The notes under the pieces: generated by a model
The model's database searches: none
Told to the model about the DNA's origin: nothing
What the model saw: the letters and a program-made list of their open reading frames with translations, nothing else
Translations under genes and position numbers: made by a program
From: Sphingomonas sp. LT1P40
GTDB taxonomy: Bacteria; Pseudomonadota; Alphaproteobacteria; Sphingomonadales; Sphingomonadaceae
Assembly (NCBI RefSeq): GCF_036663835.1
Contig: NZ_JAXOJT010000001.1
Coordinates: forward strand, 1,922,001 to 1,986,000
Reading direction: 5' to 3'
DNA length: 64,000 nt
In this document: piece after piece, positions 25,287-25,554 of the stretch
How the letters are laid out: every line of letters starts with the position of its first letter
How positions within the stretch are numbered: position 1 is the first letter of the stretch

Positions 25287-25554
25287 AGGGTCTAAACTCA
25301 CTTATAACGAGGTCGTGACGGAGCCGAATTTGGCGCTAGGCAAGAAGCAAGGAGGGAGCGAGGGATTTCCATCGTGACCGACGCGCGACGCCGCATAGCG
25401 CCAAATTCGGCCCGCCGCTGCGCGGTTGCCGATGGAAGGTCACCGAACGGCGTCGTTTGCTTGCGCGTAGCTCCGCTACGCGACTGCGCTGCACTCCTTG
25501 TCGGTGACCTTCCATCGGCAATCACGATCCTCGTTATAAGTGAGTTTAGACCCT
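25287..25554. mobile_element. MITE-like element with 26-bp perfect terminal inverted repeats
   Basis: The ends at 25287-25312 and 25529-25554 are perfect 26-bp inverted repeats (outer end AGGGTCTAAACTCACTTA). Inside are further perfect inverted repeats: 16 bp (25323-25338 with 25396-25411), 21 bp (25426-25446 with 25501-25521) and a short hairpin at 25464-25482. There is no coding frame of note. TA dinucleotides lie one base outside each end, which would fit a TA target duplication of IS630/mariner type, but two bases are weak evidence. It fills the gap between a methyltransferase and gtrA-like gene. Confidence 0.85.

What the first reader, a model, noticed from the sequence alone, without database searches (positions are those of the whole stretch)
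25287..25554. MITE-like element with perfect 26-bp ends wedged between two envelope genes
Seen directly: perfect 26-bp terminal inverted repeats, a perfect 16-bp and a perfect 21-bp internal inverted repeat, and a small hairpin, with no coding capacity. The element ends 2 bp from the methyltransferase ATG and abuts the gtrA-like TAG. Without it (keeping one TA) the two genes would overlap in the usual operon style, so the insertion may have split a gtrA-methyltransferase unit, fixed the GtrA C-terminus and changed methyltransferase translation. The nested palindromes could also fold as a stable RNA.
Basis: partly seen in the sequence, partly recalled or inferred. Interest (0 to 1): 0.75.

Follow-up and report, generated by a model that had tools for sequence, protein, structure and literature searches.

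The report
Mobile hairpin element with structured core
A 268-bp non-coding stretch between two Sphingomonas genes is one copy of a scattered, probably mobile DNA family whose ends differ from copy to copy but match each other within a copy, and whose middle keeps an unusual folded shape in more distant bacteria.

Summary
In detail: 25287-25554 has perfect 26-bp ends, 16-bp and 21-bp inner inverted repeats and a small hairpin (fold z -14). It is a dispersed family: 4 copies here; core hits in 79 of 151 genomes of the genus, 28 of 196 of the order, weaker in 15 of 289 of the class. Flanks fit TA duplication at YTAR. Thirty GAGC-ended copies resemble IS630 ends; the window's GGGT class does not. 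28 of 30 examined gtrA-methyltransferase junctions lack the element and gtrA already stops there, so it did not fix the GtrA C-terminus. New: the end arms vary between copies (0.556 conserved) yet pair within each; 72 of 98 pairs change on both sides. Inside is a helix of four tandem G.A modules; two variable G.A positions covary (G.A to A.C) with exactly the predicted partner. Copying one arm from the other cannot produce that, so the folded strand is probably selected. Most likely a MITE-like element whose core, as RNA or single-stranded DNA, helps its own spread. Mobiliser and core function are inferred.

The parts
25287..25554 (+). whole element; core strand = window + strand (antisense to both neighbours)
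25287..25318 (+). P1 left arm (terminal inverted repeat plus inward extension TCGTGA)
   Evidence: pairs covary across copies
25522..25554 (+). P1 right arm (base 25528 bulged)
25323..25338 (+). P2 left arm, 16 bp
25396..25411 (+). P2 right arm, 16 bp
25344..25358 (+). tandem G.A helix, 5' side (modules GAAG, CAAG, GGAG, GGAG)
25375..25389 (+). tandem G.A helix, 3' side (TGAC, CGAC, CGCG, CGAC)
25359..25374 (+). P3 apical hairpin
25415..25425 (+). small hairpin CCGC-TGC-GCGG
25426..25446 (+). P4 left arm, 21 bp
25501..25521 (+). P4 right arm, 21 bp
25464..25482 (+). inner hairpin CGCGTAGC-TCC-GCTACGCG
   Evidence: relatives in 121 of 121 genomes

Best explanation
One copy of an old, dispersed non-autonomous mobile element (MITE-like) of Sphingomonadales with weaker relatives elsewhere in the class. 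SHOWN by sequence: many copies at different sites; unlike arm sequences that pair within each copy; a conserved core; tandem G.A modules, two of whose variable positions change in matched pairs; no clear orientation preference relative to neighbouring genes; absence at this junction in 28 of 30 loci examined. INFERRED: it inserts at TA within YTAR, duplicating TA; a DDE transposase acting in trans moves it, an IS630/Tc1-type one for the GAGC-ended copies and an unidentified one for the window's GGGT class; the core folds as one strand (window + strand), as RNA or as single-stranded DNA, and that fold is kept because it helps the element spread, not because it serves neighbouring genes. Here it lies between the gtrA stop and the methyltransferase start and leaves both reading frames intact. 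Its local effect, if any, would be on coupling or expression of the methyltransferase.
For: Copies. Junctions without it. TA: of 150 copies 104 have TA at the left end, 84 at the right, 62 at both; the base before the left TA is Y in 100 of 104 and after the right TA R in 82 of 84. Structure on 32 copies: 98 pairs, 96.6% of cells paired against 80.3% in shuffles, 503 double-changed cells against 144, 0 of 500 shuffles reach it, slid controls 34-40% paired. Conservation by region over 133 copies: P1 arms without their first four positions 0.556, P4 arms 0.707, P2 0.775, tandem G.A helix 0.904, GCCCGCC 0.986. Non-canonical covariation over 92 representatives: column 63 has its strongest partner of all columns at 98 (MI 0.80, next 0.38) and column 60 at 101 (0.48, next 0.15); pairs are G.A 56 / A.C 33 and A.G 72 / C.A 16. 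All four modules are G.A or an A.C/A.A variant in 113 of 133 copies. Architecture recognisable in distant copies. Neighbour orientation ++27, --38, +-35, -+31 of 131 classified. IS630-end match of 30 GAGC arms: mean 12.8 of 17 against 9.7 shuffled.
Against: No transposase end was found for the window's class: 80 GGGT arms match IS630 ends at 9.5 of 17 against 9.0 shuffled; the smaller classes are near that too, GGGC (15) 10.1 against 8.9 and GACC (8) 10.3 against 8.8. IS630 (PF13358) was not found in G000, G097 (18 copies) or G144. No empty site fixes the duplication: the one joined-flank search found no uninterrupted site, and both ends of the window copy deviate from TA. Six of the eight G.A positions are nearly invariant or covary little, so only two carry the covariation. 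Wobble bias is inconsistent: over 92 representatives G.U/A.C is 69/54 in P1, 92/31 in P2 (43 of the 92 from three columns), 14/58 in P4, and 133/136 over all pairs at least 80% Watson-Crick; a direct arm comparison of 159 copies gives A.C 128, G.T 90. So neither RNA nor one strand is favoured throughout. No transcription or movement was observed.
Confidence: 0.6

Rival explanations
1. A free-standing structured RNA (small RNA) with a host or selfish function that happens to be multicopy; transposition is incidental.
For: Strong covariation, non-canonical covariation and a conserved core on one strand; G.U above A.C in P2 (92 against 31).
Against: No Rfam family reached its threshold in the window stretch or in 12 loci; near-random orientation; among the flanks compared only 3 pairs of copies share both flanks; P1 and P4 lack a G.U excess; deletion derivatives exist (L055, L065, L066, L253).
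Confidence: 0.15
2. A neutral MITE: the arms match only because replication template switching keeps copying one arm from the other; no selection on a fold.
For: Most arm changes are double, with few wobble intermediates, and G.T about equals A.C in P1; a published mechanism makes and maintains perfect stems this way (PMC8794818, abstract and outline seen).
Against: Cannot account for conserved G.A modules and their G.A/A.C covariation, where the strands are not complementary, nor for the core still recognisable in distant families. It may still explain P1 and P4.
Confidence: 0.15
3. A locus-bound regulatory element of the gtrA-methyltransferase operon.
For: G000 and G026 carry it at the same place and orientation; 10 of 15 changed pairs there are compensated (null mean 1.4, maximum 7 in 100000 trials).
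Against: 28 of 30 junctions examined lack it; copies sit at many other loci in all orientations; the local tree places G026 with G093/G134 and G000 with G030/G069, all four without it, so one old insertion lost at least twice, or two insertions.
Confidence: 0.04
4. A REP/RAYT-type element moved as single-stranded hairpin DNA by a Y1 tyrosine transposase.
For: TAG at the hairpin base and a long-hairpin fold recall REPs (recalled comparison, from no call).
Against: Y1_Tnp was found in 2 of 13 genomes with the element and 2 of 13 without.
Confidence: 0.03

Closest known systems
RUP of Streptococcus pneumoniae (IS630-Spn1-linked MITE)
   Same: Small, non-coding, TIRs, TA target; TIRs of one arm class here resemble IS630 ends as RUP's resemble those of IS630-Spn1 (passages of PMC2229807 seen)
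   Different: The passages seen report no structure/function motif for RUP; here arms are of several unlike types and the core is the conserved part; no matching IS was found for the window's class
BOX and SPRITE repeats of S. pneumoniae
   Same: Dispersed repeats with strong predicted secondary structure, BOX with modules (passages of PMC3049150 seen)
   Different: No sequence comparison run; no tandem G.A core is mentioned in the passages seen
ERIC/IRU and Correia/NEMIS elements
   Same: TA at termini, stem formed by pairing of the 5' and 3' ends, can affect mRNA when transcribed (passages of PMC2229807)
   Different: Other bacteria and smaller; no sequence comparison run
CIR repeats of Caulobacter and Brucella
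   Same: Alphaproteobacterial intergenic repeats with a conserved predicted fold (passages of PMC2229807)
   Different: Described there as two arms joined by a linker; here a closing stem joins the ends; sequences not compared

Membership tests
MITE | short, no transposase gene | tested here: met
   268 bp; the listed ORFs entering it are 181 and 122 aa and were not tested as genes
MITE | terminal inverted repeats | tested here: met
   26 bp perfect in the window; mean 92.6% arm complementarity over 159 copies
MITE | multiple copies at different sites | tested here: met
MITE | target-site duplication | tested here: inconclusive
   TA at both ends in 62 of 150 copies, in YTAR context; no empty site recovered; window copy lacks intact TAs
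MITE | ends shared with an autonomous element | tested here: inconclusive
   GAGC class (30 copies) matches IS630 ends, GGGT class (80 copies, the window's) does not
IS630-derived element | IS630 transposase in the same genome | tested here: not met
   none found in G000; found in 5 of 8 genomes tested
Rfam RNA family | match above gathering score | tested here: not met
   two hits far below gathering score; 12 loci, none
structured RNA | covariation of the stems | tested here: met
structured RNA | G.U tolerated over A.C on one strand | tested here: inconclusive
   P2 yes, P1 near even, P4 reversed, 133/136 overall
structured RNA | transcribed from the core strand | not testable with these tools
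   no expression data
REP/RAYT | Y1 transposase associated with copies | tested here: not met
   2 of 13 with, 2 of 13 without

The most novel reading that the evidence does not exclude
A class-wide alphaproteobacterial mobile element in which a conserved folded core with a tandem G.A helix, as RNA or single-stranded DNA, is a working part of its own mobility, while its terminal repeats are exchangeable and have been fitted to different transposases.
Probability: 0.25. Interest if true: 0.87.

Novelty: new variant of a known kind. Interest (0 to 1): 0.63.

Why it matters
In ordinary MITEs the ends are expected to be the conserved part and the middle passive (general knowledge). Here the reverse holds: ends change freely as matched pairs and the middle is conserved down to non-Watson-Crick pairs. 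If the fold is needed for spread, this is a small, tractable case of structure-dependent mobility and may bear on how IS-derived elements change transposase. It also offers a natural test of how far template switching, rather than selection, produces compensatory changes in stems.

Tried and rejected
Insertion into terminator palindromes: some copies looked flanked by inverted sequence. Mean flank score 8.53 against 8.20 (sd 0.16) in shuffled flank pairs, about 2 sd, and strong cases 4.0% against 2.3% (sd 1.2%) of 149; too weak to build on. Longer target duplications: no clear one; the largest excess is at 5 bases (0.274 against 0.241, sd 0.013). REP/RAYT: no association. An IS with AGGGTC ends: none seen in the end listings for 53 IS630 loci (33, 20; one search scanned 58 and assigned ends to 39, a few doubtful), and no such end pair 600-2800 bp apart in any locus fetched by then (loci are mostly about 3 kb). 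In G097, G030, G000 and G064 the arms that have a listed partner lie at most 434 bp apart, but several arms, among them four at contig ends of G097, have no listed partner, so a longer element could be hidden there. Plasmid and phage collections: no match at E 1e-5. Exact 20-base end pattern in named genomes: none. A solo hairpin in G064 (L253) turned out to be a deletion derivative, not an empty target. Literature: the listings show no paper on this family, but searches listed 20 of 1,399 and 15 of 3,441 papers, and the library holds only open-licence papers; this is no proof of novelty. Passages of PMC10969869 and PMC4741004 added nothing specific.

Rows dropped: one search handled 196 core hits: 27 duplicates and 3 at contig edges removed, 166 kept, 6 of them without arms; one search dropped L073 (159 left); one search placed ends in 150; one search classified 131 by codon-usage score, not by annotation (10 ambiguous, 7 unclear, 2 with short flanks); one search used 133 of 150 (length 255-285), then 92 representatives at 85% identity; one search used 32 of the 38 full copies, chosen by hand; one search covers the 30 best loci of 121 genomes. 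Ends were set by an automatic pairing rule, and a few copies (such as L135, L222) were probably extended too far.

Full report
The observation. The stretch folds far better than its shuffles on either strand (z -14.2 and -14.4).

It is a dispersed family. BLAST finds four copies in the own genome (100, 72, 73 and 67% identity over the matched part) and matches in 18 of 61 genomes of a relatives sample. A covariance model of the 122-nt core hits 79 of 151 genomes of the genus, with up to 18 copies; 28 of 196 of the order, in 14 of 63 genera, both at E at most 1e-4; and, at weaker scores (E at most 0.001), 15 of 289 of the class (the own genome is counted in each). Named genomes with an exact 23-base core motif are Sphingomonas, Sphingosinicella and Sandaracinobacter (51 stretches). 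No plasmid or phage record matches the window copy at E 1e-5. In G289, G510 and G676 several copies lie at or near contig ends, as expected of near-identical repeats; that is inference.

Insertion. At 150 copies the flanks read Y-TA-[GRG...CYC]-TA-R: left TA in 104, right TA in 84, both in 62, Y in 100 of 104 and R in 82 of 84. This fits TA duplication in a YTAR target, as known for IS630/Tc1 elements (recalled; the RUP case is in the passages of PMC2229807). No empty site was obtained, and the window copy itself has neither TA intact.

This junction. Of the 30 best methyltransferase loci out of 121 genomes, only G000 and G026 have the element. In 27 of the others gtrA ends 0-15 nt before the ATG; in one (L108) it is longer and overlaps by 1 nt. 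In G000 and G026 the element lies at the same place in the same orientation. A local nucleotide tree puts G026 with G093 and G134 and G000 with G030 and G069, none of which has it there, so either one old insertion was lost at least twice or there were two insertions. BLAST ranks a G030 copy (88%) above the G026 copy (85%) as closest to the window copy, which favours two insertions; the shared irregular gtrA-side end favours one. The compensated changes between them (10 double, 2 single paired, 3 broken) show change in place only if there was one insertion. A second same-site pair, L203/L226, is 96% identical with no double changes, 2 single paired and 3 broken. A third, L175/L216, is 64% identical: 22 double paired, 2 single paired, 14 single broken, 2 double broken.

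Arms. P1 arms are the least conserved part (0.556 without the first four positions) and come in several unlike types around the same core: GGGT 80, GAGC 30, GGGC 15, GACC 8, GGGG 6, GGCC 5 and 6 others of 150. Within a copy they are on average 92.6% complementary (159 copies); left arms of different copies average 60% identity after gap-optimised alignment (3000 random pairs). On 32 copies 72 of 98 pairs show double changes, and each of the five whole-structure measures exceeds all 500 shuffles and the six slid controls. Wobble counts do not favour one strand overall: 133 G.U, 136 A.C.

Core. Between P2 and the apical hairpin the two strands are not complementary throughout, but align as G-GA-G/C-GA-C, C-GA-G/C-GA-G, G-GA-G/C-GA-C and G-GA-G/U-GA-C: four tandem G.A modules. 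Inner GA/GA was counted in 87, 62, 127 and 109 of 133 copies. Two positions vary in matched fashion: G.A to A.C at columns 63/98 (56 and 33 of 92) and A.G to C.A at 60/101 (72 and 16 of 92), and for both columns the predicted partner has the highest mutual information of all columns. The other six positions are nearly invariant or covary little (MI 0 to 0.12). Sequence relatedness can inflate such numbers; the gap to the next-best column is the argument. That A.C can replace a sheared G.A is recalled. In the nine distant alignments shown, this region is among the best kept while the stems differ, but modules vary and L356 keeps little of them. The window copy has GAAG/CGAC, CAAG/CGCG, GGAG/CGAC and GGAG/UGAC.

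Mobiliser. IS630-family elements of the genus and family have TA|GAGC ends, or other ends such as GTCACCTG; 30 GAGC-class copies match such ends at 12.8 of 17 (9.7 shuffled; best 16 of 17, L179 against L281), but 80 GGGT-class copies do not (9.5 against 9.0) and the smaller classes hardly do. IS630 was found in 71 of 250 genomes of the genus at E 1e-15 and not in G000, the 18-copy G097 or G144. So an IS630-type mobiliser is likely for one class and open for the window's.

Function. Neighbour orientation, judged by codon usage, is close to random, and only 3 pairs of copies shared both flanks in the comparison made, so a role for neighbours is unlikely. The simplest account of a conserved fold in a scattered element is that copies with an intact fold spread better. 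Whether the fold acts as RNA or single-stranded DNA is undecided; G.A pairs and the P2 wobbles point to the core strand, the P4 mismatches do not.

Noticed in passing
L075-L078 (G028), L203 (G064), L261 (G097): Extra hairpin blocks (CAGGTCGCC... type, roughly 50-65 nt) sit inside the P4 arm region of some copies; they look like a second small repeat nested in the element.
   Followed up: partly
L259, L261 (G097), L074 (G007): Another inserted hairpin, with CGCAAAGTA-TTACTTTGCG-like arms, lies in or near the core region of some copies.
   Followed up: no
L253 (G064:C30:30043): Arms only a few tens of bases apart: a deletion derivative keeping a piece of the right end.
   Followed up: yes
IS630 loci among L278-L341: IS630 elements themselves have many different end sequences (GAGCGGTTTC, GAGCAAATTC, GAGCATGCTG, GTCACCTG) that match between their two ends.
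   Followed up: partly
L175 (G289) and L216 (G126): Two quite different copies (64% identity) lie at what looks like the same intergenic site in different genera, judged by both flanks.
   Followed up: partly
P4 columns of the 92-copy set: P4 shows A.C mismatches well above G.U (58 against 14), opposite to P2 (31 against 92); unexplained.
   Followed up: partly
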